From: Eunapius fragilis
Taxonomy: Eukaryota; Porifera; Demospongiae; Spongillida; Spongillidae
DNA: 64,000 nt
Direction: 5' to 3'
Assembly: GCA_963681505.1 (NCBI GenBank)
Contig: OY811978.1
Location: 4,248,230-4,312,229, forward strand
In this document: piece by piece, positions 17,963 through 64,000 of the stretch
Position numbering within the stretch: position 1 is the stretch's first letter
Layout of the letters: each line of letters starts with the position of its first letter
Notes under the pieces: model-generated
What the model was told of the DNA's origin: nothing
The model's input: the letters and a program-made list of their open reading frames with translations, nothing else
The model's database searches: none
Made by a program: the position numbers and the translations under genes

Positions 17963-20900
17963 ATGATTACCTTAAATCTTTCTATCTTAATGTTTTCAAT
18001 TGTCGTGCAAGGTAAGTAATAAGGTTTGGTTGTAAAATGTATGTATACTCCTGTGCATGTTGTGAGACCAGAAATAGATAACTTTATTTAGCTAAGGCTT
18101 GGTATCCTTTCATTTTACACTGTTTTCATGATGTTTAATCTCATGATGTAGAGGGCTACATGGAGGAATGTAGGAAAAAAATGGATGTAGTGGGCTACAT
18201 AGTAGGAATGTATGAATTCCTCCAATGTAGCCCACTACATCTGTATTTCTCCAATGTAGCCCTCTACATCATGAGGATTAAACATCATGTAACCAGACTA
18301 AAATGAATGGATACCAAGCAGTAGCTAAACAAAGTTATTTATATCCGGTGAGTGGATATCATTCCCCAAATGTAGGGTTCCAAAATTGGTCTTAGTTGTG
18401 CAAAATGGTTAGTGAACAAAAGGTTTGAATTATTAGTGGCTGAGGTCATTGCAGTGATTATCATTATGAACTGTTGCATGTTAATATGAATTGTTTTTCT
18501 CACCACGACAAGCATATTGGCATATTATAAATTTTCTTAAATTAGTTGCATTTAACACCCACCTCATGTCACTGTTAATTAACCCTACAATATACCATGC
18601 TACTTTGCATCTAATATCAACTGAATTGGGGCAGGCAGGTAGAAAAACAAAGGAAACGAACAATGGGAAAGGTCCACAATATATGTTGAAAGTAGTCTGG
18701 GTTGAAAGCTTTCGCAAGTTAAGTGGGTCATTGTGGGTTAACAGCTCAGCATACTTATGGCTTCCAGATAGAAAAATAGTGAGACAAGATGAAGAAAAGC
18801 TCTGAGATTGAGAGTTCAACAACAGGGTTAAGTTAAGGATATTCCGAGCCAAATTACCAGTGCAGTCTGAAAAATGAAGCTGCATTAGTGGGATAGGACT
18901 ATTCAATCTGAAGTAGTTGCCATGGTACCTGTGATTGTGCCAAGTAATAAATAGTGCAATAAATGAAAGAGAAACTATATATGTTTTATGTACATAAACA
19001 CACAATCAGGTACCTCCTTATAGTTATTGAATTATGCATGGCTACCAAGCTCATGAGTGTGTGTTGCCACAGTAACACATATTCAGCAGGCAACTCCCAC
19101 CATGTACCTCTCATGGTCCTTCCAAAGTCACATATCAATTGGTGCTACATGGCCTGACTGCACCAACAATACTAATACCTGGTACACATGTACTGGTACC
19201 ATCACTGAAAGAACAAACAGATCACATTCTTTGATGCTGCTTCACAACTACTCTTTGCCATGGGTTGATTGTGTCATACACTTTTGAAGTCAACTTTTGA
19301 GGACAACACGATTTGGATTAACATATCTTATAATTTACGAATATTGTAAATCAATACACAATCATGATACCACCTTTTGTTGGGGCTCACTCCACGTGCT
19401 TAGATTACAACACAGGAAATTTCATAGCTGCACATAGGAAGCATTTTGGTATGGATATGTCAATACAGACAAGCATTATTCTTATAGAGAGATAGTGATC
19501 ATATTTGATGCAAATTCAGTGTATACTCATGTGCATATGACACTCCTCTCCCCGTCATTTCAGGTACATGCCAACAGTTCACCCTAAGTTACCCACCTAA
19601 GGGTACCTACTCATGTCCTGGAAGCAAAATTACATACACCTGTGTTCTCTGCTCAAGCCTTGCTGGTGTGACCACAGTCTGGAGAGGATCAGCCTTTAAC
19701 TGTCCCTCCACTGAAAACCATGCAACAAACCAACTATCACTTTCCCAGAAGTCAGGTGGAGTAGTCAATCCAACTGCTGGTGGATCATGTGGCAATCTCT
19801 CTGCTGTGACAACAAATGTCTCCACTGATGAATATTGCTACACATCTGTCCTCACCATTCCTGCTGTTCAGGGTCTGAATGGGACCACAGTTATGTGTGT
19901 AGATGGTGATAATGGAGCTGTTGTGGGAAATGATACTGTGAATGTGAAAGTGGCAGGTAATATGCTGTCTACACATCTAATAGTTGTACAGGTTAATTTG
20001 TGTGCCTGTTCAGCAGCCCATTGTCACTGAGTAATACTATTATTAGTTATCAATTGAATTGATGTCCCTCCCTCTCCCAGCATCTCCTGGTCCTGTTGGG
20101 AACATGAGAGTAAGCAGTACATATGTGAACCAGCTAACAGTGACCTGGTCCCCTCTCACTACTGGTGGTGTTCCTACCAGCTACAATGTCAGTATCAATG
20201 ACAGCAGTAGTCCTGTGGTCATACCTGATAATGGATCATCACTGTACACCCACACTTTCACTGATCTGATCAGTGACACACTCTGCAGTGTATCAGTGGT
20301 GGCCATCAACTGTGCTGGGACCAGCAATGTGACAACAGATACCAAATGGACAGGTGATGGAATGCTGTAGGGCTATCAGTTAAGATTGATATTAATGAAA
20401 AAATTACGAATATGCTAGTGGTCATTTCCATTCTATACTTCTTTCTAAATGTGCCATTTACACACACTCTAGATGCATGGATCATATCAATATTCTCATA
20501 CCTCTATTTACAGTGGCAGACCCTCCTGACAAGAACAGTATCCATGCTGTATTTTTTTTGTACCTAAACATAACCATCCATCGCCTGAATGTCACCTGGA
20601 CACCTGTGGTAGGCAGACATACCATGTGAGCTAATGGTGAACCATTGGTCACCTCCACAGGGAGGTAGTGTGACCATGTACACAGTGAGGGTTGTTGGTG
20701 ATGGTACCTCTGTTGGTAAAGGCACCACTAACTGTACCACTTCAACATGTCACTATGTCCTAGAAATCTCTACCATTGCCACCAGTTATGTCATCTTTGT
20801 TGCTTCCATAAATGGAGATGGATGGGTGGGTACAGAGAGCAATTTAACTGTGAACGGTTAGTTGCAATTTGATAATAAAAATGGTGTTAATGATTAGCCA

Positions 20901-23900
20901 TAAATTTATGCATTTTCAAACACCCCAAGGTTTAGTGGAATTTCCATCACACATATTGAATTGTCCCGTTAAATTTTTTCAGACATGTATGTAATTTTAA
21001 TGAACATTGATTTTCCCAGTCATCAACAACATCACAGTGGTGAACTATGGTGTTTCCAATGCATCCATTCAATGCTCATTTCGGGACAACCAGTCTCTCT
21101 ACTGCTTAGTGTGCTGCAGTACTGATCCAACAGCTCCTCCTAACTCAAGTGTGTACAACATCTCCTCTACCAGAGGCGCAGAGGTGACTGTTGACCTTGA
21201 TGACCTCACCAGTGGTCAGACTTACTACTGCAAGGCAGCAGCTACCAACAACAATTCCAATCCTTACAACTGCACCTTTCCTGGGTTTGGTAGTGTTAAT
21301 GCATTTGTCACCTTCACGACTGCAACAATGAAAGCAGGTGTTGTTTGCATGGATAGCAGTGCAATTGAAATTAATTGTGTTTGTATTATACTTACTAACA
21401 ACATTTTCCCTTTTCCAAACAGTAACCATACCTATAAGTACAGTCCCTGTTTCCTCAGGTATTTATGGGTGCAGAAATGAATATATACTTTACCCATTGT
21501 AATACAAATGTTACAGCAATCATCGCCGCCATCACTACCACCTTAGCCCTTTGTGTTGTCTTGGTCATTATTGCCATGGTGATTCTCTTCGTTTACATCA
21601 GGAGGAGGAGAAAAGGTGCAATTTTAAACCGATTATAACCATAGTTACCATGGTGACAAATTATTTGTGCATCAGCAAAGCACAGCCCACACACGCATAA
21701 TTATATTCTGCTCTTCTTCTTCAACCACTCACACATTCATGCACACTCACTCACACATATATATCCTACATGCTTGCAGGAGACAAGGCAAACAGGTAAA
21801 TCCATGCATGGTGAATGTGCATAGGGTAAATGTTAAAGCTAGATATCACTTTAGTAGCAATGGTGCATATAGTAGTAGCGCAGTATGATAGTATGTACTG
21901 CATGCTTACAATTCATTTTCAGATTTCCGCCCACTTCGTTGCAAGAGCTACAGAAGCAGAGGGAGTGAGGCTTGTGGAACGCGTAGCATAGCGCATGTAG
22001 TGTAGAATCATACAAAGTGTTCTGCTATTTATCTGCATGACTGAACTGATCACTCGTCCCTAGACGATATATCCGCACTTCTGAAGTGGTCGCCTCTAAT
22101 GCCGTGTACACATACAGTAATCACGATAGAATATACACCGAATGCTCATGTACGCGGGACTACGAACATGTAAATGCAGCCAATCAGATGCCCACAACCG
22201 AGGACACTACACATGTGTATAGCACCCCCGACAATAACAGATATTATGTGAGCGAGATTTTACGTAACGCGCAAGATAAATCGATGATACGATTAACAAG
22301 TAGAAACAATGACGTCGACAGAGATGCGGCTTCATGCATGACATTCCGAAGTACAGGGGGTTGGTCGGGTGTGGATGGGGGTGGTGATGAGAAATCTGTG
22401 TGGCCCTACCATCTAGGGTGCTTAATTATTCTCCTCATGTATCAGATAAAACCACGCCCACCTCGTACTATATAACGTACACACGAAGGGCCGGACACAG
22501 GGCATGGGTATGGACGCCTGGATGACGCAGACCCTTCGCAGAAGAAAGTGACTGCTATGCGCAGCCAGGACGACGTCGTTAAGCCAGGTAAGCACATCTG
22601 TACGTATACTTGCGCACGTATATAACATATTGTACAACAAGTACTTCTGTTGCACCACAGGTAAAGTGCATATCATGATGTTCAGTTGGCATTGTATTAT
22701 AGGCTGATCATCAATAGTATATGGGCAAGATGGCGGGTATTGAGATTTTACGCATTTCTGCACCAAAGTGTCAATGAGCACGCAGTGCAGCGGCGTAGGA
22801 AGGAGTTTAAAAGTGGGGGGGGGGAAAGTTCGATGGCCATCATGGCGGGAGAGCGGTGCCCCTCCCCCAGCCAGCTAGGGGAATACTGTAAGCTTCCGCA
22901 TTGGGGTCTGGGGCTGTGCCTCAGAAGCCAACGCTATTTGCGTCTAATGACGTTACAAAACTACACTAGAATCAGTGCAATTCATTACAAATTACGCATT
23001 TATCTGTAGTATCGCTGGTGTAAAAGTGGGGGGGGGGGGGGGCATGGCCCCCCACTTTTAAAAGTGGAGGGGCAGTTGCCCCCCGTGCCCCCCCCTTTTC
23101 CTACGCCACTGAATTGTATCAGTGAACGTGAGGGCGAGCATATATGGTATATTAATTTATTAAGGTATTTGCTGAGACCAACCAACCAACCATGCACATG
23201 GAGGCCAACCATGTAGGGCCTGGGGAGGACAACCATGTAGGGTGTGGGGAGACCAACCATGTAGGGTGTGGGGAGGTCAACCATGTAGGGTGTGGGGAGA
23301 CCAACCATGGAGGGTGTAATGGAGGCTAGCACATGCACACAAGGGCCAGGTACCTCTGAGACTGTGTAAAAAACATCAAGAACATTTGTTTTGTACATCA
23401 CCATTGCAATAACAGTATACCTGTTATGGCTACGGGTTATTCATAATATGACGCCGTGAAAGGAATAGAGGAAAAACCATTGCACATGATATGACCAATA
23501 ATGTCATGGCACTGCCATGTGATTAGCCTGACTGATAAGCTGAAGTAAGGGAGGCTGCTGAAGACTTGTATCTAAAATCAACTCCTTTCATGTTTAGAAG
23601 TACTCTGAGAGTCAGCTATTACAGTGTATTAAAGCATTGCAGAAACTTTACATAAGTTGTAGCCTAACATGTGAGCATTACAATAGAAGTACATGACATC
23701 TATATAGGTCAATCAATAAGAGGGAACTGCATACACATGTAGTGCAGTAACATGCCTCACTGAGAAATACTATTTCAATTAATATGTGTAAGCATATTCC
23801 ATAATGCCCTCTCCCTACTCATCATACCCCAAATCCATCCATCAGAGTATCACATCTTCATTGTAAATAAATGCAATTCAAGTTGTCAACTTTTTTATTT

Positions 23901-24285
23901 TGCCAATTAGCTACTGACGGCCAGTAATATGCACAACAGGTCATAACATGGAGTAGGATGATCACATGATGCACGTGTTGGACACCTGCACTGGATGTGT
24001 GAACATAACTGCCAAGCATTCCTGTAAACAAACATATATTTTCTCACCCAATACAGCATGCCACCATGGCTATCAAAGACGACAGTTACTCTGTACCACT
24101 GAAAGCGTCAAAGTCAAATGTAACAGGTACGTGTGCTCTACATGCCGTCACATACACACCACATGTGATCACTTGTTATAGTCGTACAAGTTCCAGTTGT
24201 GTCCCATCAAGTCCTGGCCCTGGTCCCTGAAGGAGACTATGCTCTGCCTACGGATTATAAAGGAGTGCTTAAGAAGACCACATAG
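17963..24285 (+). CDS. Ig/FN3 transmembrane receptor, copy 1 (tail type A)
   Basis: Predicted type I membrane receptor. Exons read: 17963-18011 (signal peptide, MITLNLSILMFSIVVQ), 19564-19956 (Ig-like, 393 nt), 20081-20353 (FN3), 20514-20608 plus 20661-20856 (second FN3, split by a 52-nt intron), 21020-21337 (Cys-rich membrane-proximal), 21423-21458 (12-codon stalk), 21517-21615 (transmembrane helix, then RRRRK), 21780-21795 (16-nt microexon), 22064-22247 (tail with RDYEHV and HVYSTPD). Phases agree through this point. The next exon, 22446-22587, meets TAA at 22473-22475, giving 562 residues. Its remaining frame (PDTGHGYG) and exons 24057-24126 (DDSYSVPLKAS) and 24182-24285 (GDYALP, stop 24283-24285) are homologous to the tail of copy 3, so the tail is either truncated or spliced differently. 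An acceptor-like CAG just before the ATG suggests an upstream noncoding exon. The ligand is unknown. Confidence 0.82.
18078..18340. mobile_element. Foldback element in intron 1 of receptor copy 1
   Basis: The inverted arms contain TGATGTTTAATCTCATGATG and GATGTAGAGGGCTACAT with their inverses, and the outer part pairs AACTTTATTTAGCTA with TAGCTAAACAAAGTT. About 260 bp, noncoding. Confidence 0.85.
22786..23112. mobile_element. hAT-like MITE with poly-G segments
   Basis: The ends are CAGCGGCGTAGGAAGG and CCTTTTCCTACGCCACTG, close to the CAGTGGCGTAG termini common in nonautonomous hAT elements. The interior contains AAAAGTGGGGGGG segments in both orientations. It lies in a tail intron of receptor copy 1. 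No convincing 8-bp duplication is visible. Confidence 0.65.
23165..23320. repeat. ~21-bp tandem repeat
   Basis: Units of the type ACCAACCATGTAGGGTGTGG are repeated about six times with changes, in a tail intron of receptor copy 1. Confidence 0.75.
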
Positions 24286-24673: not shown

Positions 24674-24715
<42 letters not shown>

Positions 24716-26635: not shown

Positions 26636-27251
26636 ATGTACACTGTTACATTGCTGTGCGTATTGATAGCGGCATGGCGGGTTCTTCCAGTGGAGTCAAA
26701 GCGAATTCACCATGCGCAGGATATCGATAAAATTATCCACGTGAGTACGGAATTTGACACTGCAAGCATGAATAAAAAACGTATGCAATTGTTCACAGGA
26801 GAGCAATGTCAATCATCATGGTGAAAAGGTTGAAGTTCAAACTCCCTACTCTGTTGTGTTGACAATAAACAACAATAGCGGTTTCACGATGACTTACGTG
26901 AGAGAATGGTATAAGTATGGTTCACGTGCCCCCGGTCAAGAGTGGCCAATAAGAATTGAAAACGGACAGACAGTACAGGTTATAAGCATTGCTCCATCAC
27001 TGGGCAGTGTTTCGGGATTTGTAATATATGCTACGGGCAGTGAAGAGGTAACATATGCTTTCTCAGCTCCCAGTGTCGGGGATAATAAGCTCGGCGTTGG
27101 CACCGGTGGAAAGGAAGTGTGGGAAAACATGGAGAGTCACGACTACAAGCCCTTTAGGGTCATACTAACCCTAGGCAGTACCAAGGTTTATTTTGATTGC
27201 TTAGCTACTGGTGGTGGTGTCAACAATGCACAAGTCCGAAGCTCAACTTGA
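26636..27251 (+). CDS. Small secreted protein of unknown family, two exons
   Basis: Exon 1 (26636-26740) encodes a clear signal peptide (MYTVTLLCVLIAAWRVLPVES). It ends at a consensus donor, CAC|GTGAGTACGG. A 58-nt intron with acceptor TTGTTCACAG leads to exon 2 (26799-27251) in phase 0, which runs to TGA. The product is 185 residues, about 165 after signal cleavage. The mature part is rich in Ser, Gly, Thr and Val, with regular hydrophobic alternation (VVLTINNNSGFTMTYV, GFVIYATGSEEVTYAF), suggesting a beta-sandwich. It has few cysteines and no transmembrane segment. I do not recognise the family; the compact single domain would fit a secreted lectin-like or membrane-binding protein, but that is only a guess. 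It stands alone between receptor copy 1 and the HECT region. Confidence 0.72.
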
Positions 27252-35580: not shown

Positions 35581-36925
35581 GCACAATAAAAGAGCCAGGA
35601 AAGGGTTACAAACTTTATTTATGATGTGCACACAAGGTTGAAATAATTTCCATTGGCATTGGCTGTATTGAACCAAAATTGCATTGCTCTTCAGTATTGA
35701 GTTACAATTATTGTCATTTATCCTAATGCGTATTTATTGGGAAAAATACAATCCATTATTATTGCAAATGTTTTTGAATATGTACAAATTAGTCCAAAAA
35801 GCTTGAAATAGGGAAGGGGGGGGGGGGGGGGGGGGGGGTGCATGAATGTAAATTAAAACATAAAAACGCCAAAACATAAAACTATATAAAGTGACACTCC
35901 GAAGGGAAAAATAAGGCCATTGCCCAACGCCACGGAGTAGTTACATGTAAAGTTCCGTCTCTCAAGCTCTATCCGAATCCTATCAAAAAGTAGTAAGTTG
36001 GAGCCAAATTGCCGTACGAATCCTCCGTGATTCGCCCACTGAGAGCTGAAGCATGTGTCTCATATAGGAAAATAACTTCTTTTTCTCATATCACCAGAAA
36101 ATGTACAAAATATACGCAGCGTTGCGTGCAATTTCGAAATTAGTATTTATGAATTGTTAAACCTCAGGAACTGGGAAAGGCATTCGGGATAGCGGCTCAA
36201 CCGAGTATGATTACTCGGGGGAAAAGGCTGCTCGTGATAGCTTACTGAACAAATTCTCGCCCTTTTGGTTTTGGAGTTCCGGCGTAGCAGATCGATTCCC
36301 CCACACTAGCAGGAAGAGACACGTACAAACAACACCCATTCGTTTTACCAGAGATCATTGTTTGTGACTGCTGCCTCTTGTTTTGGACTCAATTGAACCT
36401 AATGATTCTGCAACAGCTCTCCAAGACTCCAACATTCCACTTCCGCAACATTAAGCATACGCGTACACGTAGCCACGTGCACAATACCTACTTAGACACA
36501 CCGTACATTAAATTCCATGCATACCTGTAATAGGATTGGTGCTGCCAAAAATCGAGCGATTTGCAACCGAACTTTGGTCGCGTCGTACCAGACCCTATTT
36601 AATTTGTTTCTCAATAAATAGGTCTGGGAACGAGACAATTTTATAACTATGTTTGCTATTTTCTTTTTCCCTTCCCAATCAATAAACCTTGTTTCCTTTC
36701 TTTTTACACCATTATAACCTTCCTTCCTATATACTCTCTACTTTCTCGTAGAGAAGATTTTATCACTTGTATTATTTAATGGGTGCATTGAAGAGTATTG
36801 GTTGTTTGATTATCATTTTCACGTGGAATTTACATTTTGATACACAGCTGAAATGGTCAACACAGAATTCCACAAATGTGCACATGCATTGATCTATTCA
36901 ATTATTGGATATCTAATCATGCAAG
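35580..36925 (+). repeat. Duplicated 5' flank of receptor copies 2 and 3 (first member)
   Basis: This stretch is homologous to parts of 43950-45987. Shared blocks include GTGACACTCCGAAGGGAAAA, CATTGCCCAACGCCACGGAG, TAGTAAGTTGGAGCC and GCAATTTCGAAATTAGTATT, ending with the signal-peptide exon. It includes a poly-G run at about 35817-35838. The second member contains about 900 extra bases. Confidence 0.8.
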
Positions 36926-39900
36926 GTAAGTAATTTGAAAATTTAGAACCATGTACATGTAATTTACTTTTCGAGGTGCACCATGATGCAGTGTTATAGA
37001 AAAGCATGGGAAAGCATGGTAACATTCAATTTACCTGCAAGATAATTGCAGCGTATGTTGACAGGGGAGGCATTCGCCTATGATGGTAAAAAAAAATGAT
37101 ATAAATTCTTAGCTAATGTCCTTCTCAGACAACATTTAACACCATCAAAAATGCTTAACTATTTGAATTTTGAGTATGCCTCGCCACTTCCTTAATGTTT
37201 ATGAATAACAATTCCTTTGTTGTGTTAAGATTCGGCCCAGCCTCTTCGATTGACAAAACGTGGAATGTTTCAATGGCACGCATGCGTAATCCTAATTATC
37301 ACAGTAATATATTGCATTCCGCCCCCCTACAGTAAGTACTAGTGATACCATTTCACTGAGTGCTAGGTGGTTTATGTATTCTTTATGGATCCCTCTGAGG
37401 AGGTGCCAATCCATCTGTACCATTAGCAGCTTTTGCTTGATCAATCCTGCTCCACCTCCACTCTTGGCCTGACCTGATTACATAACTCAATAGAAGCATT
37501 CTCAGACTGCCTCGTTCTGCTCTGCTGTGTTTGTGTCCATTATGTTTTTATCTTATTTCAGCCTCTCCACACATTGAAACTTAATCTGAATTACCCAGAC
37601 GTGGTCTTTATGTCTCTTTCGCACTCCACCTAGTTGTGTTCAAATGCTAAAAGATACTGGCCCAGATAGTTTTTCAATAGCATCTGTCACCACACTGGTC
37701 CCTGCCCAAATTTCTAGCCCAAATTTTTTAAACCTCTTGTCCCAGAAATTATGCACAGATCCATCCATGTATTGAAGCAGTTCATTTGTCCCTTGACTTT
37801 TATAACACATGTCAAGGCCTAATATGTTAAGCTGAAAGATTATTGATAACCAACATGCAACATGATTGATTTTCTAGTTATCGACAATATCACAGCTGTG
37901 AATGATGGTGTTTCCAATGCATCCATTCAATGCTTATTTCGGGACAACCAGTCTCTCTACTGCTTGGTGTGCTGCAGTACTGATCCAACAGCTCCTCTTG
38001 ACTCATTTATCATTGTATCAAGACCAACAATGCAAGCAGGTGTCTACTGCATGATACCAGGGGAATTGTGTTTGTAATAGCTTTTTTCCTTTTCAAACAG
38101 TAACCATTTTTCCTTTTTTCAAACAGTAACCACACATATATGTTTCTCCAGGTATCTATAGGTGCAGAGAAAGGAATATATATATTATCCATTGTAATAC
38201 AGCAATCATTGCCACCATCATTACCATCTTTGCCCTTTGTGTTGTCTTGGTCATTATTGCCATGGTGATTCTCTTCATTTGAATCAGGAGGAGGGGAAAA
38301 TGTGCAATTATAAACCTATTGTAACCATGGTTACCAAATTATTTGTGCATCAGCCCACACACGCATAATTATATCCTGCTCTTCTGCTCTTCAACACACA
38401 CACACACACACACACTTTCATGCACACTCATTCCCACATATATACCCCACATGAAAAAGGAGACAAGGCAAACAGGTAAATCCATGCATGCCGAATGTGC
38501 ATAGGTGTCAGGGAAGCCAGCCAGTCCTAAGGTGTGCAACAATTGAGGGACAGTAACCTGTCACAAGGCTGCATTCAGAAGGTTGAACTAAAGTGTTGTA
38601 ATACGAACTTGAGGTTAAAGTTAGTCACGTATTGTTGATATGTGTATGTGTATATAAGCATGCACGTATGTTGGAAATATAGATGAACATGATGATGATG
38701 GCAGTTCTCTGAGTTATTGGCCTAAGTTAATGTATACTGCTGCAGTGTAGTATAGTTTTGGTGGTCTACAGCGTCGGCACGATAGCACGTTACTATACGG
38801 CCTTCTACAATAGGGTAAATATTAAAGCTGGCTATTACTTTAGTAGCAATGACGCAGATAGTATGATAGTATGTACTGCATGCTTACACTGTGAATTCAT
38901 TTTCAGATTTCATCCACTTCGTTGTAAGAGCTACAGAAGCAGAGGGAGTGAGGCTTGTGGAACGCGTAGCATGGCGCATGCATGTAGTGTTGAATCATAC
39001 AAAGTGTTCTGCGTATTTACCTGCATGACTGAATTTTTTATGATTACTCGTCCTAGACCATATACCGGTACCTCTGAAGTGGTCGCCTCTAATGCCGTGT
39101 ACATGTACATGTTCAGTAATCATGATAGAATATAAAACGAATGCTCATGTATGCGGGACTCCGAACATGTGGATGCAGCCGATCAGACGTCCACAACCGA
39201 GGACACTATACATGTGTATAGCATCCCCGACAATAAGGTATAAATATTGTGTGAGCGCGATTTTACGTAACGCGCGCAAGATAGATAATACGATTAACAA
39301 GTCGAAACAATGACGTCGCGACAGAATGCGGTTTCATAACATTTCGAAGTACAGGGATGGTCGGGTGTGGATGGATAGTGTATGTGGCCCTAACATCTGG
39401 GGCGCTTAATTACTCCCGCCACATGCCTCCCATGCATGGTATCCCCACAGTCCCATATCATACAACAATTGGTGTATCGTCGCCAACTTAATAAGACACA
39501 GATAGGCGTGAAATGGTACAGCACACAGACCAATGCTCTAAACATAGCACCAAACAAACATATAGCCGGCAACCAGTAACAACATCAAAAACCAGCAAGT
39601 TTTCATTGTGCCATTTCATATTCACCATTCTTCATTTTGCTTTTTGCAAAAGGCCCTTCCCCACGTAGCCACGCCCCCACCATCCATCCAGGCATGTATC
39701 CTGCTTCCATTAAAATATTTTTAAAAATAAGAGTCAAATAGTGTGTGCCATTTTAGGCTAACCGATTGCTTGCTATTCGAAAATCATATGAAAATCCAAT
39801 ATTTTTTTGCCAGATGTTGCCCTATTTGGTGTCTAGCCAGCCGCTTTGATGTGGGGCACGTGCTGACTCCTTTTAAATAGTTTTGTGTGCTTCCTTCTCT

Positions 39901-41385: not shown

Positions 41386-41407
41386 ATTATATATACAAAT
41401 GTTTGTA

Positions 41408-42770
41408 CAGGAGGAACAAGGAAAGGTGAATTTACTTGCGCTCTGGATATAACTACGTAGGATATACCATTGTACATGGCCTTATCAGCTGTAATGTAAT
41501 GATTTTGTAGTGGAGACATCACGGCTCCCAACAGCCACCAGGTGGTGGTAGACGTCTAGTAGTAAAGTTCATTGCTGTATTAGATTTTCCTGTTATAAAA
41601 TGCTCTTTAATAACTTTTTGAATATGTTGCATATGTCCAAACATCACATCATATGGCATTAATACTACTTATGAAGAAGTGACCTCACCACAGACCCCAG
41701 CTGATCATAAGGATGGGGGGGGGGAATCGCTAAAGATGTCTATTCCACTCCTAACCTCTTTGTAATAGCACTCCTAGTGGCTTTGAAGTCCAAAAATATA
41801 TAAGTGCTAAGAACAGTGTTATAATTACACATTAAGACAAGTGTATAAAAACATTACTCTAATTGATGGCAATCTAAATGGAAAGTTGATGTCTATCTAA
41901 GCTCACTTAATTTCTCTTTCAGATATTACCGCATCCCCATCCTACGCAGATAAACGCACAGGGCATATATATATATATATGCCCTGTGCGTGGATCTATA
42001 GAGACGCAACTACACTTAATTATATCTGAAATGTGGTCTTCTGCAATGTCAGTTGACTGAGCACATGTGCCTTATATACTGTCTCCTGAATGGCACATGT
42101 GCTCAGTCAACTGTCATTGCAGAAGACCACATTTCCAGATATAATTAACCAATTAAGTGTAGTTATTATTATATAGCGTGCAGGCCTATGTCAGTATGGA
42201 CTTGCATTTTATGAAAATGCTGGTAATAATACAAGGATCCCTGGTTTTTACAGATGGTTCCATAATTTAGCTTACATGATGTTGATACTGAAAGATAAGT
42301 GATGTCATATTTGGTGAACTGACATAAGGGAGATAATGCTACATCACTTGAGGCTGCAAACCACAGCTAGGATACGCATCCTTGCCTGTATGGGGTACAG
42401 CAGAAATGATTACACAATTCGGCTGTATAACCTCATCCACCTACATCTACATGTATGTCCTGTGGTTCACTGTTAGTATAGACACCTCCTGTTCGAAGGG
42501 CAAGAAATTTAGATGGGACCTAGATACTGTGTGGGTTAGTTGGTGTGGTGGGATGGAGCACATGTCTTTGAGGTCATTCTGTGACAGACATGTGGGTAGT
42601 CTGTAGGACATGGCATCTTCCACACACGTCCCATGCACACACATGTTGTACTCACAAGTGACCCATCCCAGCACACCCAAATCAGCACAGCACATTCCCT
42701 TTCACTGATGATGACCACACTCTTTCTGCAAAGGAAGTCTTCCCACATGAGGCATCAGGTGGCAATGAAG
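41408..42770 (+). pseudogene. 3' fragment of a type-B receptor (copy 2b)
   Basis: This stretch is homologous to the tail exons and introns of copy 3. It has a microexon-like GAGGAACAAGGAAAG (15 nt rather than 16) at about 41411-41425, an exon at about 41641-41702 (SYGINTTYEEVTSP) running into a poly-G run, an exon start at about 41923 that has one base less than copy 3 and is cut by a palindromic MITE, and an exon at about 42693-42769 (DDDHTLSAKEV...HEASGGNE). No transmembrane or extracellular exons precede it. The TTYEEV motif fits the ITSM pattern TxYxxV. Confidence 0.8.
42009..42174. mobile_element. Palindromic MITE, ~165 bp
   Basis: Arms ACTACACTTAATTATATCTG and ATGTGGTCTTCTGCAATG pair with their inverses up to TTAAGTGTAGTT. 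It is inserted in the copy 2b exon region. A shorter palindrome (ACAGGGCATATATAT) lies just before it. Confidence 0.87.
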
Positions 42771-42859
42771 GGGTGTGTGCACTTGGTATGTTATAACAGG
42801 AGAGTATGCCTCCTCATGTATGGGGACGCTCTGGCTTCTGCTTTTTTATTCTAGCTATG

Positions 42860-45914: not shown

Positions 45915-48900
45915 ATGGCCAACACAGAATTCCACAAATGTGTACATACTTTGATGTATACAATTATTGGACATCTAATCATGCAAGGTAAGTTAAATTG
46001 TTTGTAGAAGAGAAATTCATGCATTTATGTGCATTTATACACAGAGTTCAGTACAATTTGCCTTGCAAGGTGTCTCTGCGTGTTTTTTTTAAGTATATAA
46101 AAAACCAGACAGCAATGTTATAGAGTTAAATATTATACACGATTGCAGTACTGGATCAAAAAATTCAAGCAGAATAACACCATTCTGAAAGTGTAAAAGC
46201 AAAAAATATTTATTTCATGTGAACATTCTATTTCATGAGAATTTTACGACATAGGCAATGCCATGGTAACATAATTCAACTCACCAGATAATTGCAGCGT
46301 ACGTTGTGGGAGGTATTGCGCGAACACCAATTCTTAGCTACTGACAACATTTAACATCATCAAAAATGCTTAAGTATTGTGAATTTTGACAATGCCTCTC
46401 CACTTCCTTAATGTTTATGAATAATTATTCATTGCTTCAGCTGACATAACGCGGAACGCACCCAATGTTTCAATGACACGCATGCGTAATCATAATCCCA
46501 CAATCACAGTAATACATTAGACTCCTCCGGGCCCCCCCTCTACACTTCCTGCAATTGTCACTGCAGTGGGGGACGTACGAAGGGGGCGTGGCAGAGGAAG
46601 ACTTATTCACAACTATCAATGCAGACTGCCTACATGTAATTGTCTGCAATGAATAATATTATCGAAGGGCTGGGAGGGGGGGGTTAACCCCCCCCCCCCC
46701 CTCCCCCCTCCCCCCCCCCCCCCCCCCCCAGCCGCTATTGCACTGAGTGCTAGTATTGTTCTGCTGGTTTATGTATTTTTTATGGATGCCTCTGAGGAGG
46801 TGCCAATGCAACTGTACCATTGCTTCATCAATCCAGCTCCAGCTCCACTCTTGGCCCATGCACACAACAGCAGCATTCTCAGACTGCCTTATTCTGCTCT
46901 GCATTGTTTGTGACCAAACTCAATTATATATCCCCTCCACATCCTGATATATCCTAGGCACCTCTGGTTTGGTCTTTATGTTTTCCACACTCCATCCTGT
47001 TGTGTTCGAATGCTAAGAGATAACTGGACCTGATTGTTTTTCAATGTATCTAGCCCAAACCTCTTGTCCCGGAAGGAATGCTCATTCTTTGCAGTGAGCA
47101 TCATGGTGAATTTCTTCAAGTCTGTTTCTGTAGAACTCATGGTCGATCATAGTTCTTTGCCCATAAACAGAACACCTGGTTGTGAATTTCATGCACAAAG
47201 TCTTTTCTCTACACTGTTCTGCTGCCATAGCCCTTTTAAAGGTCTTTATGAAACGTTCACTCCATTTGAAGCTGGGGGATAATCTGATGATCTCATATGC
47301 TTCACACCATTTGATACCAAATATGACTCCATCTCAGTAGGCCCAAATTGTGGGCCAATATCACTAACCACTGAGGAATAATATTTGGCAAGCAAATCTC
47401 TCAACAACCACCACAATTCTGTCAGCAGTGGAACTAAAAATCAAACTCCTGGCTATTTAGAGTGAGCATCTACAGCTATAAACCACATTTCTCCATAAAG
47501 GAGTCTGCATTTACTCTCACACACAGTCTGCCTGGTCAAGATCATGAATTCAAAAGAGTTACAGGGTGTCTGTGTGTGTGTAGGGGAGAGGGGGAGTGTT
47601 GGGTTGAGCTAGTTGACATGTAGTACACAATATCCCCTTCTATGCCAGGCCATAAAACACAGCAATACATTAAATCTCTGATGTTCATAAATCCATTTTC
47701 CTTTCCCTTCATCAAAGGTACATGCCAACAGTTCACCCTCAGTTACCCACCTAAGGGTAACTACTCATGTCCTGGAAGCAACATTACATACACCTGTGTT
47801 CTTTGCTCAAGCTTTGCTGGTGTGACCACTGTGTGGAAAGGATCAGCCTTTACCTGTCCCTCCACTGAAAACCATGCAGCAAACCAACTATCACTATCCC
47901 AGAAGTCAGGTGGAGCAAGCAATCCAACTGCTGGTGGATCATGTGGCAATCTCTCTGCTGTGACAACAAATGTCTCCACTAATGGATATTGCTACACATC
48001 TGTCCTCACCACTCCTGCTGTTCAGGGTCTGAATGGGAGCACAGTTATGTGTGTAGATGGTGTTACTGGAGCTGTTGTGGGAAATGATACTGTGATTGTG
48101 AAGGTGGCAGGTAGGTTGGGCTGTACAGTGTATTATATTAGTGCACCTGTACATGCACAAAAACCTGGCATCACATGAAGGATGTGGGCAGTAGCTTGGC
48201 CTGCATCCAATCAACATATGGAACAATGTCCAGCATAATCAGCCTTATCCATCTCCCTCTCCCAGTATCTCCTGGTCCTGTTGGGAACCTGAGAGTAAGC
48301 AGTACATCTGTGAACCAGCTAACAGTGACCTGGACCCCTCCCACTACTGGTGGTGTTCCTACCAGCTACAATGTCAGTATCAATGACAGCAGTAGTCCTG
48401 TGGTCATACCTGATAATGGATCATCACTGTACACCCACGCCTTCACTGGACTGATCAGTGACACACTCTACACTGTATCAGTGGTGGCCATCAACTGTGC
48501 TGGGACCAGCAGTGTGACAACAGAGACCAAATGGACAGGTGACTGAATAGCTGAAGGGTTATCAGTTTATACAGCAAAGATGCAGCATTATACAATAATA
48601 TGCCCGGGGTCATTTACACCTTTGGGATCCAAGTGTTTTCTTTCTAAATGTGCAATTTACACACACTCTAGGTGTATGTATAATCAATATTCCCATACCT
48701 CCATTTGCAGTGGCAGACCCTCCTAACAAGAACAGTATCCATGTTGTATTTGTTTTGTACCCAAACATGACTGTCCATTGTCTGAATGTCACCTGGACAC
48801 CTGTGGTAGGAAGACGTACCATGTGAGCTAATGATGAACCTTTGGTCACCTCCAGGGAGGCAGTGTGACCATGTACACAGTGAGGGTTGTTGGTGATGGT

Positions 48901-51900
48901 ACCTCTGTTGGTAAAGGCACCACTAACTGTACAACTTCAACATGTCTCTATGTCCAAGAAGTCTCTACCTTTGCCACCAGTTATGTCATCTTTGTTGCTT
49001 CCATAAATGGAGATGGAGTTGTGGGTCCTGCAAATAATTCAACTATTAATGGTTAGCATATTCATAACTTGTTTATTTTCTGCTCATCAGATCTAAATAT
49101 TGTTAATACTACACACAATTATTAGCCTGATTAATACATCAAAGAAGGATATTGTGCACAATTCAAGTGCATTCCACCTATTTAAAAGTACATGTGCTTC
49201 ATTTTGTCCCATGAATTGTTTTCGGACTTCTATGTGAAAAATTATAACTTTATGATTTTCCCCAGTTATCAACAATATCACAGCTGTGAACTATGGTGTT
49301 TCCAATGCATCCATTCAATGCTCATTTCGGGACAACCAGTCTCTCTACTGCTTAGTGTGCTGCAGTACTGATCCAACAGCTCTTCCTAACTCAAGTGTGT
49401 ACAATATCTCCTCTACCAGAAGCACAGAGGTGACTGTTGACCTTGATGGCCTCACCAGTGGTCAGACTTACTACTGCAAGGCAGCAGCTACCAACAACAA
49501 TTCCAGTCCTTACAACTGCACCTTCCCAGGGTTTGGTGGTGTTAATGTGTTTATCACCTTCACTACAATGCTAACATTACAATCAAAGGACATACCATAC
49601 ACAGGTGATTGGGCATGAAGACATCAATACCTGTATGATACTCGTTCACACACATTACCTCTCAGTCCATATAAGTATATTATGGTGCCATTATTCCCTT
49701 GTAATGACAACTTCTTCTGTTGGCAGACCAGGTGGTGATACTTGCTACTCTCTTTCCTACTGCTGTTGTGGCTGTAACCATGGTAACAATCATGGTGGTT
49801 GCTGTCATTTGTTTCAAGAAGATGAGAAAAGGTTCTGGTAATATGTAAACATTCATGTGTGATGATATCCAACTACTTTGTTGATCTCTCACAAATGCAC
49901 ACATACATGCAAACGTTTAATTTGATGCAAATTTCTGCACAGGAGGCAAACGTGAAAGGTGAATTAACCTGCACACTGGATAACTACGTACTATATTTGT
50001 GTATATGACCTGCTGTAAGATTATGTTTTGATAGTGGAAATATTGCTAGTCACCAGGTATATATATATTTTGAAAAATAAAATTCATTGCTGCATTATAA
50101 TTCTTGTGAATACTTTTCATGTGTCCAGACATCACACGCCCACCTCATATGGTGTTAATGTAATGTATGAAGAAGTAACCTTACCACGGACCCTAGCTGA
50201 TCATAAGGATGTGGCCATCACTACTGAGGTATACTCCACTCCTGACCACAAGGTACAGCAATTGGTAGCGCACAAAAATGAAATCCCTTGGGAATAGTTT
50301 AAAATGAGCATTCTGGAATATAGGATATGAACAATTATGAATGTTATTGAATCATCGTCCGGTTCTGATCAGATCATTTAGTTTTTTGTCCAAAATATGA
50401 GCAGTTTGATGTTACAAATAGTCAAATAATTCATTCCACCACCACCTTCCACTCCTCCCCCTCTCCTCCTGTTTGTGTGTGGCTTTTTTGTATGCAGACT
50501 CTTCAGAGGCATTGATGTAAGGAGAATGTGAACTAAAACTGATAGCTTTGAGAAGACTGTAGCACGATAACAGTAGCTCTATACTACAGTAGCTATTGAG
50601 TTATAGGCTTGCAAGGCAATGATGGTGTAAAAAGGAAGCAAACAGTATAGTGTTAAGAACATTAAAGTGCACATGGGTCTGCTTCATTCCCTGATGCTCG
50701 TTTGTTTACCTCGTACACCATTATTGCTTTCAATCCAATATTCATCCAACTTATTCAGTTTTGGAAAACACAAAACGTGCTTAGAACAATGTTTATTATT
50801 ACACTGTAGGAAATAATACATCCCTCTAACTAATGCAATCAGCATTGTAAATCCAAGCTCGCTTTCTCTTTCAGATAAAATCATACTCTCCATCCTACAT
50901 AGTACCAGACACAGGGCATATTTATGGACTCCTCGAGGACCCAAATAGTCCTTCAAAGAAGGAGACAGCCCTCAAAGAAGTCCACAGACCAAACACCATG
51001 AACCTAGTGAGCATAGTTATAATCAGATGGTTTTGTTAGTTTATGAGCTGCATGTGTGCAGCATTACACAATGCAGTTACAGTCCCAGATGTTTTTAACA
51101 GATGGTTCCATAATGTTGTTTTTGATACTGAAAGGTTAAAATGAATTACAAGAGACAGTAAAAGATACACACAGTAGTAACATAAGCTCCACCATGAACA
51201 TCCATGTGGCTATTGTCCTATGGTTCACTGTCATTTTACCGGCAAAATAAATAGATGTTGGATGGACTAATGACTGTGTGGGTGCATTTCTTACAATCTC
51301 TGTATCTGCTGGTGGGTGTCCTAACATGGAGGCCAGTGTTGGCCATTACGACATAACATAATAATTTCTCCTGCTGTCTGGGAGGGACAATAACTAGGCA
51401 TGCGTGGGTGGACTGTACTGCAGCTCAAAAGCTCAATGAGTTGTGGCTTGGGAGCAACAATGGTTTGGTGTGTTTTGTGTTTGTTACCATTGTGTATGTA
51501 AACATACATGTCCATACACATGTACAAGGGTAATATTAGCATTGAAAAAGATTTGACATGTCCTTTTTATGTACTATGTATGCAGTGCATGAGTGCTCCT
51601 ATTCCTGGAAGGGTCATAAAGGTTGTGATGGACCAGAAAATGTCAGCCTGCATGTAACATGTCCGTAATGTGCCCTCAATTTGTATCAGCTTAAGAGCAC
51701 TTCTCCAATGGTCTTCCCACACCATTCTAATTATAGACCAACTATAGGATGTGATAATAGCAGCCACCTATGGAACTGTGTGGACAAGCTGTTTCATCAC
51801 GCACTCACATACACAAATACAACGCACATATATACATATCTATATATATATATATATAAGACCCATAACTCACATAACACAAAAGCACACAAGTGCACTA

Positions 51901-52371
51901 ATGCACGCTTCCTCCAGCTCAGCATATTTCCTGTCACTGATGATGGCTACACTCTGTCTGCAAAGGAGGCCTCCAGACATGAGGCATCAGGTGGCAATGA
52001 AGGTGTGTACTAAGAGATGCACCCAATAAGCGCACAATATATTGAATTATATTTCAAACCAAGGGGATAGACATTATCATAGTAGTAGCTGTATGGAAGT
52101 TATATGCACAAACATATAAGCCACCTGATAAAGATGTCATGAGCATAAGCAATAATATCATGACACTCGAGATATGATGCATCAGATGGTATGACCTTTT
52201 CATTTCCCCACATGTTTTTACCTGTATCCTACTGATTAAGTTCTCATAGTGGTGTCCCATCAAGTCCTGGCTCTGGTCCCTGAAGGTGACTATGCTCTGC
52301 CTGTGGATAAAGGAGTATGTAAGAAGACTGAAGCACCAGGAGAGTATGCATGTAAGCTGTATGGTACATAG
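45915..52371 (+). CDS. Ig/FN3 transmembrane receptor, copy 3 (tail type B), complete
   Basis: Twelve exons join in phase to 1953 nt including the stop, 650 residues: 45915-45987 (signal peptide), 47718-48110 (Ig-like; Cys pairs in YTCVLCSS and VMCVDG), 48266-48538 (FN3, LTVTWTPPTTGGVPTSYNV), 48711-48805 and 48856-49051 (second FN3, 50-nt intron), 49266-49604 (Cys-rich, LYCLVCCSTDP), 49727-49831 (transmembrane), 49943-49958 (16-nt microexon), 50129-50252, 50875-51006, 51918-52002 and 52250-52371 (tail, TAG at 52369). The tail has VMYEEV (ITIM consensus VxYxxV), VYSTP, YIVP and YALP (YxxP, bound by Crk-type SH2 domains), and HIYGLL. Many NxT/S sites lie outside. All introns are GT/AG. A signalling receptor whose phosphotyrosines recruit SH2 proteins is the natural inference; the ligand is unknown. 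An acceptor-like CAG before the ATG suggests a noncoding leader exon. Confidence 0.88.
46670..46730. repeat. G and C homopolymer cluster
   Basis: GGGGGGGG, then GTTAACC, then long C runs in the first intron of copy 3. It can form a hairpin. Confidence 0.85.
46745..47520 (-). mobile_element. Ty3/gypsy integrase remnant in intron 1 of copy 3
   Basis: On the minus strand, across several frame breaks, one can read LWFIAVDAHSK, VVSDIGPQFGPTEMESYL and YPPASNGVN, close to the integrase core of gypsy elements (VDAHSKW, SDNGPQF, YHPASNGAAER). The part nearest 46980 is homologous to the remnant in copy 2. Stops and frameshifts throughout; no LTRs seen. Confidence 0.72.
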
Positions 52372-52503
52372 GTACTGGAGGTTAGTCATGTAAGCTGTAT
52401 GGTACATAGGTACTGGAGGTTAGTCATGTAAGCTGTATGGTACATAGGTACTGGAGGTTAGTCATGTAAGCTGTACGGTACATAGGTACTGGAGTTTGGT
52501 CAT
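52348..52503 (+). repeat. 38-bp tandem repeat covering the receptor copy 3 stop codon
   Basis: Four units of CATGTAAGCTGTATGGTACA plus TAGGTACTGGAGGTTAGT. The first unit contains the last codons and the TAG of copy 3; the following units repeat that segment in the presumed 3' UTR. Confidence 0.9.
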
Positions 52504-57360: not shown

Positions 57361-57393
<33 letters not shown>

Positions 57394-59940: not shown

Positions 59941-59946
59941 AACGTC

Positions 59947-60311: not shown

Positions 60312-60954
60312 TCAGACTCGTACTGACCCAAAAAAAATGGTGTCCGGACTCCCACAACCTTCGATTATCAATGATGTTATGTTATGAGGGGGAGGGGGGG
60401 CGGGGGGGTTATAATGAAACGTCACAATGACGTTATCTTTTCCAAAAGTTTGGAGACGCCCCCTAACACTAGTCCCCCTTCGTCGCTATATTTATAGGCT
60501 TAATTCCGCAGCAAGCTCTTGCTCGAAAACAGGACAAGGTGGAGGGATCATAGCTGCAGTGTGGTCGAGTGCAGAGCAGCTAGCTGCAGCTCTTTTAATT
60601 GTTTCGAAGTTGCTATCCATGGCAGATTAAAACAAGACGCCATGAAAGATTCCTTTGATTGTGCAGGTGCTGCAACGCAGTCCATATACGTCCTACTCTG
60701 TGATGACTATCGATGACGCGATGGCGATGACGACGATGAAAAATTATCGACGCATTCGAACAAATGTAGCATTTATTTCATCGTATACTTCATGTTCGTC
60801 TTCGAACCATATAAACGTACAGCGCTCCTCCCCCATAGCTAACCAGGACATTAGAGATTAGGGTGCATCCAATGTTAAGGTACAATAATATGGAGCATGA
60901 AATTGATTTTTATGTGAGATAATAATTTCATGTACATTTTAATACACAGTCCAG

Positions 60955-63900
60955 ATGATCAAAACAAGTTTCCACAAATGTGTACATACTTTGATGTATG
61001 CAATTATTTGGCTACTCATCATGCAAGGTATGCTATAGTAAGAATGAAAGTGGTGAACTCCGAGATTAATACTGAATAAGAATAAATGCAAGATATGATG
61101 CAAGCAAAAATGTGTGCATCAATTTTGATATTGGAAAACATGCAGTTGAAAAAAATCAATACATGCAAATTCTGAGCTAATTGTAATTCTTCTGACAGTC
61201 ATGCATATTCATGTCAACCCCCAATTCTTCATGATTTTGGTACCTTGAGTGAGACATCAACAAGAAGGGAAAAAATGGAACTGTACCTGCCATGATTTAG
61301 TTTTAGTTATCAAGTACAATATTTTTGTTTCATAGAACATTCATCAGAAATTGCACATGCTTATTGTTATTTTTATACCACATACCGGCTTTTAATGAGA
61401 AAACATTAACATATTAAAACCATTGAAATGGAATATGTTATATGAAAGTAGTACTAAAAATTGCATTCAATACTTTGTTATCAATAGAATCAGATCATAA
61501 TAAATTTTTGCATGGACGGGACAAAGCATATAAAATATTTTTACCCTTTTTCACTATTTTAAATGACCATTAGCACATCTCCCTCTTGTCTCAGGTTCAT
61601 GCCAACAGTTCACCCTCAGTTACCCACCTAAGGGTGCCCACTCATGTCCTGGTAGCAACATTACATACACCTGTGTTCTTTGCTCAAGCTCTGCTGGTGT
61701 GATTACAGTGTGGAGAGGATCAGCCTTTAACTGCCCCTCCACTGAAAGCCATGCAGCAAACCAACTATCACTCTCCCAGAAGTCAGGTGGAGTTGTCAAT
61801 CCAACTGCTGGTGGATCATGTGGCAATCTCTCTGCTGTGACAAAAAATGTCTCCACTGATGGAAATTGCTATACATCTGTCCTCACAATTCCTGCTGTTC
61901 AGGGACTGAATGGGACCACAGTTATGTGTGTAGATGGTGTTACTGGAGCTGTTTTTGGAAATGATACTGTGATTGTGAAGATGGCAGGTGGGTTGAGTTG
62001 GGATGTGTCACAGTATTTTAAAATCAGTGTGCTGAATATGCATGAAAACATCAAATATAACTTGCCTATGGCTGTTCTGAGTATAATATCAATAACTACT
62101 CTTGTGTTCTGTGCATAACTATATAAAGTAGTGCTCTGACCCTCAATTCTGTGGCCAATATTGATGCCACTGAACACCTCCTCCTCAGTATCTCCTGGTC
62201 CTGTTGGAAACATGAGAGTAAGCAGTACATCTGTGAACCAACTAACAGTGACCTGGACCCCTCCCACTACTGGTGGTGTTCCTACCAGCTACAATGTCAG
62301 TATCAATGACAGCAGTAGTCCTGTGGTCATACCTGATAATGGATCATCACTGTACACCCACACCTTCACTGGACTGATCAGTGACACACTCTACACTGTA
62401 TCAGTGGTGGCCATCAACTGTGCTGGGACTAGCAATGTGAAATCAATGACCAAATGGACAGGTTTACCTACTATAGTGATTATAATGAATAATTTATAAA
62501 TGAAACAGGATTAATTATCATTCAGATTGGGTTATATGCAAACAAACGTAATATGCAGACTTTAATATTCATACTTAATTAAGTGTATGCATGTCAAAAT
62601 GTGTGCTCCAATCCTTACCTCTATCAAACCATTCATTCCATTCACAGTGGCACAGCCTCCAAACAGTAACAGTATTAGTGTTATGTTTATTCTGGATAGT
62701 ACCGAGACCCTCCCCCTTCTGTACATCATGTGGACACCTGTGGTAGGAAATAATATGTCACATGACCCAGTGATGAACCTTTGGTCACCCCCAGGGAGGC
62801 AGTGTGACCATGTACACAGTGAGGGTTGTTGGTGATGGTACCTCTGTTGGTGAAGGCACCACTAACTGTACCACTTCAACATGTCTCTATGTACAAGAAA
62901 TCTCTACCTTTGCCACCAGTTATGTCATCTTTATTGCTTCCATAAATGGAGATGGTATTGTGGGTCCTGCAAATAATTCAACTATTAACGGTTAGTTAGC
63001 TATGTGACAAATTTGTATTAATGGTTAGTCAGCTGTGGGGCTAATGTGCATAATTAATCTTCATGCTAATTTTAGAGAAGGGTATTTTCTCGTGGCAAGA
63101 ATGTATAGTGAAAATCCAAAAGTAATTTATGTAATGTTCTCATATAAGGCAGGGGTGGAGGATTCAGAAGCAGAAATACTATTATGCTAACATAAAAAAA
63201 GAAAGTCTGATAACATGAAACTAAAATACTGGATGTTCCAATAAATTATTTTTGTAGTCATCAGCAACATCACAGTGGTGAACTATGGTGTTTCCAATGC
63301 ATCCATTCAATGCTCATTTCGGGACAACCAGTCTCTCTACTGCTTAGTGTGCTGCAGTACTGATCCAACAGCTCCTCCTAACTCAAGTGTGTACAACATC
63401 TCCTCTACCAGAGGCACAGAGGTGACTGTTGACCTTGATGGCCTCACCAGTGGTCAGACTTACTACTGCAAGGCAGCAGCTACCAACAACAATTCCAGTC
63501 CTTCCAACTGCACCTTTCCTGGGTTTGGTGGTGTTAATATGTTTGTCACCTTCACTACAATGTTATCATCAAAGGACACACCTAACCCAGGTGATGATGA
63601 TCTTTGGGCATGAAGACATCAATACTTGTTGATTTACATACATTACCTCTCTGTCCACACTAGGAGTTGAGATGCCTCTTCCAGGTATATTGCAGTGCCA
63701 TTATTCCCTGTGTAATGAAAGCCTCATCTGTTGACAGACCAGGTGGTGATAATCCTACTTGCCACTCTCCTCCCTACTGCTGCTGTGGTGGTAACTGTAG
63801 TAACAATCACAGCACTCTCAGCCATATGTTTCCGGAAAATACAAAAAGGTTTTGGTGCATCAAAAAGCTTTATGAGTGTGATTTTATATGAACTTTCCAT

Positions 63901-64000
63901 TATTTTGCTCCACCTCACATAATTACACACACAATTTATCATGCTTACCCATGCATCTATATTCACACAAATATGCACACATACATTTACGCACAGAGGG
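60955..64000 (+). CDS. Ig/FN3 transmembrane receptor, copy 4 (type B), cut by the window end
   Basis: Exons: 60955-61027 (signal peptide, LMYAIIWLLIMQ), 61595-61987 (Ig-like, 393 nt), 62189-62461 (FN3, 273 nt), 62648-62742 and 62795-62990 (second FN3 split by a 52-nt intron), 63258-63590 (Cys-rich), possibly 63663-63683 (21-nt stalk exon, GVEMPLP) and 63738-63848 (transmembrane, starting DQVVIILLATLLP). All phases agree with copy 3 and no stop is present. The acceptor-like GCACAG at 63991-63996 may mark the 16-nt microexon, so the tail lies beyond the window. The transmembrane exon resembles copy 3 rather than copy 1. Probably functional so far as visible. Role and ligand unknown; see copy 3 for the shared architecture. 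Confidence 0.88.

What the first reader, a model, noticed from the sequence alone, without database searches (positions are those of the whole stretch)
17963..64000. Array of Ig/FN3 receptors with inhibitory-type tyrosine motifs
At least three readable copies, one pseudogene and one fragment of a single-pass receptor family lie on one strand in 46 kb. The order is signal peptide, Ig, FN3, FN3, Cys-rich domain, transmembrane segment and a tyrosine-rich tail. Motifs VMYEEV (copy 3, 50.18 kb), TTYEEV (fragment 2b, 41.66 kb), and VYSTP, YIVP and YALP fit ITIM, ITSM and YxxP consensus patterns. Clustered Ig receptors with ITIM/ITSM tails mediate immune inhibition in vertebrates and allorecognition in Hydractinia (established knowledge). 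A comparable system in this animal would be new to me.
Basis: partly seen in the sequence, partly recalled or inferred. Interest (0 to 1): 0.92.

Follow-up and report, generated by a model that had tools for sequence, protein, structure and literature searches.

The report
Sponge receptor array with tyrosine tails
A freshwater sponge carries a large clustered family of predicted cell-surface receptor genes whose inner tails keep tyrosine motifs like those of immune receptors in other animals, which gives a testable candidate for how sponges recognise self, non-self or microbes.

Summary
The array is real. Contig number and lengths match the freshwater sponge Eunapius fragilis. The window holds three readable genes, one pseudogene and one tail fragment; the three were modelled with AG/GT junctions, in frame. 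They belong to a larger cluster: 44 of 100 Ig-type exon rows used lie on C8 at 4.0-5.9 Mb, and 31 of these 44 have a tyrosine-tail exon downstream. Two FN3 domains are confirmed. The "Ig" exon shows Ig hallmarks but no significant Pfam or PDB match; structure predictions failed. In 15 short tails sampled from seven contigs, both tyrosines (Y[ED]x[VM], NxxYG) are invariant; 10 of 15 fit strict ITIM or ITSM. In the window's tail type, 12 of 13 rows keep YEE[VI], 6 of 13 fit strictly (rows). One strict hit in one tail is no more than chance (37% of shuffles). Pooled dN/dS shows no positive selection. Inhibition and allorecognition are untested. Verdict: a poriferan variant of clustered tyrosine-motif receptors.

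The parts
17963..18011 (+). copy 1 signal-peptide exon (MITLNLSILMFSIVVQG), donor GTAAGT, phase 1
19564..19956 (+). copy 1 Ig-like exon, 393 nt
   Evidence: Ig hallmarks only, no significant Pfam/PDB match
20081..20353 (+). copy 1 FN3-1 exon
   Evidence: model; the homologous exon of copy 3 hits fn3 in Pfam
20514..20856 (+). copy 1 FN3-2, exons 20514-20608 and 20661-20856 around a 52-nt intron
   Evidence: fn3 E 6e-6 for the joined exons
21020..21337 (+). copy 1 Cys-rich exon, possibly FN3-like
21475..22247 (+). copy 1 transmembrane exon (21475-21615), 16-nt exon (21780-21795), type-A tail exon (22064-22247) with DYEHV and VYSTP; the frame then meets a stop at 22473-22475
24214..24282 (+). type-A terminal exon LALVPEGDYALPTDYKGVLKKTT (then stop), probably beyond the stop of copy 1
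36853..39374 (+). copy 2 pseudogene: signal exon, truncated Cys exon, TM exon with a stop, type-A tail with stops and DSEHV in place of DYEHV
41393..42772 (+). fragment 2b: type-B tail exons a (TTYEEV) and c detected, no ectodomain exon
45915..45987 (+). copy 3 signal-peptide exon
47718..48110 (+). copy 3 Ig-like exon
48266..49051 (+). copy 3 FN3-1 (48266-48538) and FN3-2 (48711-48805, 48856-49051)
   Evidence: Pfam fn3 E 3e-17, two stretches
49266..49604 (+). copy 3 Cys-rich exon
49727..49958 (+). copy 3 transmembrane exon (49727-49831) and 16-nt exon (49943-49958)
50129..52371 (+). copy 3 type-B tail: exons a 50129-50252 (VMYEEV, VYSTP), b 50875-51006 (YIVP, IYGLL), c 51918-52002 (GYTLS), d 52265-52351 (YALP, EYA); stop by read-through (CKLYGT*, ends 52371) or after a splice to 52554 (ASVL then stop)
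60955..64000 (+). copy 4: signal 60955-61027, Ig-like 61595-61987, FN3 62189-62461, 62648-62742, 62795-62990, Cys 63258-63590, TM 63738-63848, 10-nt exon from 63997; tail with ALYEEI, LYSVP and IYGVL continues in L039 beyond the window

Best explanation
The window is a slice of a still duplicating cluster of single-pass receptors in Eunapius fragilis. The N-terminal Ig-like domain, whose middle segment is the most variable part, probably binds a ligand on another cell or a microbe; the FN3-type domains form a stalk (inferred). On engagement or clustering the tail tyrosines are phosphorylated, most likely by cytoplasmic SH2-kinases, and the conserved Y[ED]x[VI] site recruits an SH2-domain protein in ITSM/ITIM fashion (inferred). 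The most widespread tail in the genome is short, with Y[ED]xV and NxxYG about 21-22 residues apart; the window's subfamily has a longer multi-exon tail with more sites (YEEV, YxxP, YGLL). The likely role is variable recognition of self/non-self or microbes with a shared signal output.
For: Phase-consistent models without internal stops. 44 of the 100 Ig rows used lie on C8 4.0-5.9 Mb, 31 of 44 with a tail exon 1.0-3.8 kb downstream on the same strand; type-B tails have an Ig exon upstream within 8 kb in 11 of 12, against 2 downstream and 0 on the other strand; type A 4 of 5, against 0 and 0. Both tail tyrosines are invariant in 15 of 15 short tails (4 invariant of 45 cytoplasmic columns; P 0.006). 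YEE[VI] kept in 12 of 13 long-tail rows. Amino-acid variation is highest in codons 27-72 of the Ig-like exon. Adjacent SH2 and kinase domains exist at C9 163-171 kb and 981 kb.
Against: No transcript, protein or phosphorylation data. The Ig fold is unproven. Pooled dN/dS of the Ig-like exon is 0.62 (28 copies) or 0.70 (32 copies; dN>dS in 63 of 496 pairs); the variable block has 0.61, a value reached by 1030 of 2000 random codon sets, and its dS is also high (0.228 against 0.066 and 0.075 in the flanking blocks), which looks like exchange between copies rather than positive selection. In long tails the five tyrosine columns together are not significantly more conserved than the others (0.87 against 0.76, P 0.08). 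For type-C tails only 37 of 127 have a detected Ig exon upstream within 8 kb, 17 have one downstream and 2 on the other strand.
Confidence: 0.6

Rival explanations
1. Allorecognition locus: a polymorphic, linked receptor complex in which ITIM/ITSM-type tails hold back rejection when self ligand is seen, as proposed for Hydractinia Alr and Botryllus FcoR genes.
For: Clustered multigene family with ITIM/ITSM-type tails and a variable N-terminal domain; a review states that multigene families in haplotypes with these motifs are found among cnidarian and ascidian candidates (passages).
Against: No polymorphism, segregation or fusion data; no pooled dN>dS; a relative, Ephydatia muelleri, has many tandem expansions of other kinds (passages); the main text of the Amphimedon graft transcriptome paper does not hold the word immunoglobulin.
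Confidence: 0.22
2. Microbe or particle recognition receptors that signal through SH2 pathways, not allorecognition.
For: Large family on many contigs; two marine sponges change expression of several Ig- or FN3-domain genes after microbial stimuli (PMC6208332 passages).
Against: No expression data for these genes.
Confidence: 0.38
3. Adhesion or activating receptors: YEEV/YEEI recruits Src-type SH2 domains and YxxP recruits Crk-type SH2 domains, so the signal is adhesive or stimulatory.
For: Glutamate at +1 and +2 fits the Src SH2 consensus better than the SHP consensus (both recalled); three YxxP in the copy-3 tail, P 0.023 by shuffling; alanine at -2 in 3 of 15 short tails and 6 of 13 long rows (hand count).
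Against: 10 of 15 short tails fit strict ITIM or ITSM.
Confidence: 0.3
4. Mostly decaying duplicates inflated by assembly artefacts, with few expressed genes.
For: Pseudogene and fragment in the window; receptor copies in inverted pairs 98.7-100% identical over about 3 kb, which could be fold-back or haplotypic duplication; the assembly has 802 gaps and a BUSCO score of 60% (passages).
Against: Many distinct intact copies; tail tyrosines invariant in divergent members; mean dN/dS below 1 in each of the 7 exons tested.
Confidence: 0.1

Closest known systems
Hydractinia Alr family (allorecognition complex)
   Same: Linked multigene family of Ig-type receptors with ITIM/ITAM-type motifs (stated in PMC12065747 and PMC11999971, passages only)
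   Different: Here Ig-like plus FN3 ectodomain and another tail sequence; homology and polymorphism not tested
Botryllus fester co-receptors (FcoR)
   Same: Type I receptors in a cluster with a long tail bearing ITIM, hemITAM or core YxxI/L/V motifs (PMC12065747, passages)
   Different: FcoR have a V-type Ig, sushi and two C2-type Ig domains; here Ig-like, FN3, FN3, Cys-rich
Vertebrate SLAM-family and other ITIM/ITSM receptors (recalled)
   Same: TxYxx[VI]; tails such as TIYEEV and TVYEEV fit the ITSM pattern
   Different: No homology shown, no SAP or SHP partner shown here
[quoted passage not shown]
   Same: Sponge receptors with Ig-like domains, reported there as upregulated after grafting
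   Different: No kinase match in the cluster among the rows listed
Sponge aggregation factor genes (Grice et al. 2017, seen only as a reference)
   Same: Candidate sponge self-recognition genes
   Different: Extracellular proteoglycan complex, not tyrosine-tailed receptors (PMC11999971 passage)

Membership tests
Immunoglobulin superfamily domain | Cys-Trp-Cys core and E-F strand pattern | tested here: met
   C27, W40, C112 and VLT-x7-NG-x4-C invariant in 17 of 17 chosen paralogues
Immunoglobulin superfamily domain | significant match to an Ig profile or structure | tested here: not met
   No Pfam hit at E 0.1 for the copy-1 exon; of 17 members one at E 0.33 to C2-set_2; PDB antibody light chains at E 0.5-1.2, the only 4 hits; by profile 6 Ig chains at E 0.08-0.8 and 3 zinc-finger chains, one of them ranked first
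Immunoglobulin superfamily domain | Ig fold in a model | tested here: inconclusive
   AlphaFold2 mean pLDDT 33 in both runs
Fibronectin type III | Pfam fn3 above cut-off | tested here: met
   copy 3: 3e-17, 63 bits, two stretches; copy-1 FN3-2: 26.8 bits against cut-off 25
ITIM/ITSM receptors | strict [SIVL]xYxx[IVL] or TxYxx[VI] in the tail | tested here: inconclusive
   10 of 15 short tails; 6 of 13 long rows (hand count); core Y[ED]x[VM] in 15 of 15, YEE[VI] in 12 of 13
ITIM/ITSM receptors | phosphorylation and SH2 partner (SHP, SAP, SHIP) | not testable with these tools
   SH2 (70 matches), PTP (192) and kinase (154) matches exist; no SH2-PTP gene was identified
Receptor tyrosine kinases | kinase domain in the same gene | tested here: not met
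   No PF07714 match in C8 4.0-5.9 Mb among the rows listed of 154; only the best candidates were scored and a few rows were not listed
Allorecognition locus (Alr/FcoR type) | polymorphism linked to fusion or rejection | not testable with these tools
   one haplotype held
Allorecognition locus (Alr/FcoR type) | clustered related receptors | tested here: met
   44 of the 100 Ig rows used lie on C8 4.0-5.9 Mb
Allorecognition locus (Alr/FcoR type) | diversifying selection in the recognition domain | tested here: not met
   pooled dN/dS 0.62 over 28 distinct copies, 0.61 in the variable block; between paralogues only, alleles not tested

The most novel reading that the evidence does not exclude
C8 4.0-5.9 Mb is the freshwater sponge histocompatibility complex: a poriferan cluster of variable Ig/FN3 receptors that uses ITSM/ITIM-type phosphotyrosine signalling, so this signalling logic of self/non-self recognition reaches back to sponges.
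Probability: 0.2. Interest if true: 0.93.

Novelty: new variant of a known kind. Interest (0 to 1): 0.72.

Why it matters
Sponge self/non-self recognition has been described for decades, yet its receptors are not agreed. The review seen here says that candidate proteins of sponges, cnidarians and ascidians are not conserved, while ITIM/ITAM-type signalling is shared from cnidarians to mammals (PMC12065747 passages). A sponge cluster with ITSM-like tails would extend that shared output to Porifera and gives a defined locus to test by grafting and gemmule fusion. I found no report of such motifs in sponge receptors in the open library: searches, with passages (not whole texts) of some of the papers listed. 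Most subscription papers are not covered, and protein databases could not be searched.

Tried and rejected
Rejected: copy 1 as bearer of the YALP exon (stop before it); strict ITIM in every copy; receptor tyrosine kinase; positive selection from pooled counts.

Led nowhere: structure predictions; PDB and Pfam for the Ig-like exon; an SH2-PTP gene, sought only by comparing two domain lists by eye, the second of them cut; a paper search for sponge SHP-2, whose ten listed papers were off the subject.

Errors mended: searches stopped on script errors and were redone. The copy-4 model had wrong exon limits (8 stops) and was corrected; the copy-3 exon d was off by one base and was corrected. The Cys translation of copy 2 is in a wrong frame; one search is used. 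The copy-3 tail shuffled was typed two residues short at the c-d junction and without the last residues after EYA.

Rows dropped: one search used 100 of the 116 Ig rows, typed by hand (16 short, split or stop-bearing rows left out), and all 127, 12 and 5 tail places. The 38 uninterrupted Ig exons are a hand count of the 44. One search used 28 distinct copies with at least 74% identity, drawn mostly from the 30 best loci (C8 and C9). One search used 17 chosen sequences of the 46 distinct ones.
Full report
What organism. The window is C8:4248230-4312229 of a genome with 218,937,333 bases in 24 contigs. The genome note of Eunapius fragilis gives 218.91 Mb in 23 chromosomes plus a 28.5-kb mitochondrial genome, with chromosome lengths of 24.99, 14.86, 14.35 and 10.49 Mb (passages). 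Contig lengths here are 24,992,492, 14,860,723, 14,351,435 and 10,492,394. The name is an inference from sizes.

The array. Repeat and exon searches place copy 1, pseudogene copy 2, fragment 2b, copy 3 and copy 4 on the + strand. Copy 3 gives one open frame through 12 exons, from MANTEFHK to a stop after GDYALP...EYA, with AG acceptors and GT donors at the 11 junctions. The last step (read-through CKLYGT*, or a further splice to ASVL and stop) is open. Copy 4 is open through tail exon c; no acceptor for its exon d was found in the stretch tested. Copy 1 is open to its tail exon a and then meets a stop in the position of exon b. All models rest on sequence; no transcript was seen.

Scale. The copy-3 Ig-like exon finds 116 matches in the genome. 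Of the 100 rows I used, 44 lie on C8 between 4.0 and 5.9 Mb; 38 of these are near full length and uninterrupted (hand count). More distant matches lie on C8 0.15-1.9 Mb and on C3, C4, C6, C7, C13 and C20; C9 holds close and distant copies, C19 one interrupted copy. Thirty-one of the 44 have a tail exon of type A, B or C downstream on the same strand. Direct reading adds a YEEV tail for the copy at 4331406 (L041), a degenerate TLYRDR tail for 4347488 (L042) and an A-like tail for 4367598 (L043). For the copies at 4174352 and 4456991 (L063, L065) a TM exon but no tail was found in the 3 kb fetched.

Tails. Type B (window copies 3, 2b, 4): 12 matches, all on C8. Exon d with YALP: 16 places, all on C8 4.02-4.68 Mb. 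Type A: 6 matches at 5 places. Type C, one exon with transmembrane segment and short tail: 127 matches on ten contigs at E 0.1 or better. In 15 type-C tails from seven contigs (C8, C7, C3, C4, C1, C6, C20; pairwise identity 27-91%, median 48%), only Y, N, Y and G are invariant among 45 cytoplasmic columns, and both tyrosines are among them. The motif reads TIYEEV, TVYEEV, TVYEVV, SEYEVV, SVYEMV and similar; five of 15 fail the strict patterns (AMYEVV twice, ATYEVV, GVYDEV, SVYEMM). In type B, 12 of 13 rows keep YEE[VI], and the tyrosines of YEEV (13 of 13), of YSTP (10 of 10) and of YGLL (10 of 10) are kept in all rows that reach them, while two other tyrosines are not (9 of 13, 6 of 9); the five columns as a group are only marginally more conserved than the rest (0.87 against 0.76, P 0.08). 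The shuffle control shows why a single motif hit is weak: 37% of shuffled copy-3 tails hold a strict ITIM or ITSM; three YxxP are rarer (P 0.023).

Ectodomain. FN3 is certain. The Ig-like exon carries conserved cysteines, a tryptophan and an Ig-like E-F segment. Its weak PDB matches are antibody light chains and, by profile, IgA and antibody chains besides zinc-finger chains; none is significant. Variation is highest at codons 27-72, where dN is 0.140 and dS 0.228; codons 1-26 have 0.030 and 0.066, codons 73-110 have 0.040 and 0.075, codons 111-129 have 0.102 and 0.124. The joint rise of dN and dS points to mosaic exchange between copies rather than selection for change; balancing selection within a population was not testable.

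Mechanism. Shown: a repeated receptor layout in sequence and conserved tail tyrosines. Inferred: phosphorylation by cytoplasmic kinases with an SH2 domain (such neighbouring domains exist), docking of an SH2 protein, ligand binding by the Ig-like domain. The sign of the signal is open. NxxYG at a near-fixed distance may be a second docking site (inference).

Known systems. Hydractinia Alr and Botryllus FcoR genes are reported to carry ITIM-type tails (passages). This family works like them in outline, with a different ectodomain; membership is not claimed. A related freshwater sponge is rich in tandem expansions of many kinds (passages), which tempers the allorecognition reading.

Noticed in passing
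C8, pairs around 4,488,803, 4,593,867 and 4,660,213 (loci L052/L053, L082/L083, L023/L024, L030/L031, L048/L049, L075/L076): Receptor genes in inverted pairs 98.7-100% identical over about 3 kb (centres are my arithmetic): recent palindromes or assembly fold-backs.
   Followed up: partly
C10 about 5.5-8.45 Mb: Large cluster of matches to tyrosine phosphatase and FN3 domains, perhaps receptor phosphatases.
   Followed up: no
C3 2.38-2.94 Mb: A run of type-C tail exons where the Ig search found no Ig exon: the same tail may sit on other ectodomains.
   Followed up: no
window 6329-9499: Gypsy-like retroelement remnants (reverse transcriptase, RNase H and integrase domains in separate frames).
   Followed up: partly
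window 26772-27248: Open frame of 159 aa with no Pfam or PDB match.
   Followed up: partly
window about 52350-52500, and downstream of exon d in L039, L074, L082: Minisatellite of about 38 nt (GTCATGTAAGCTGTATGGTACATAGGTACTGGAGGTTA) that begins at the exon d donor and repeats it.
   Followed up: no
type-B C-termini (copy 3, L039, L078): If the last splice is used, tails end in SVL or SVI, which resembles a PDZ ligand (motif recalled; sequences); L073 would end in SAP instead.
   Followed up: no
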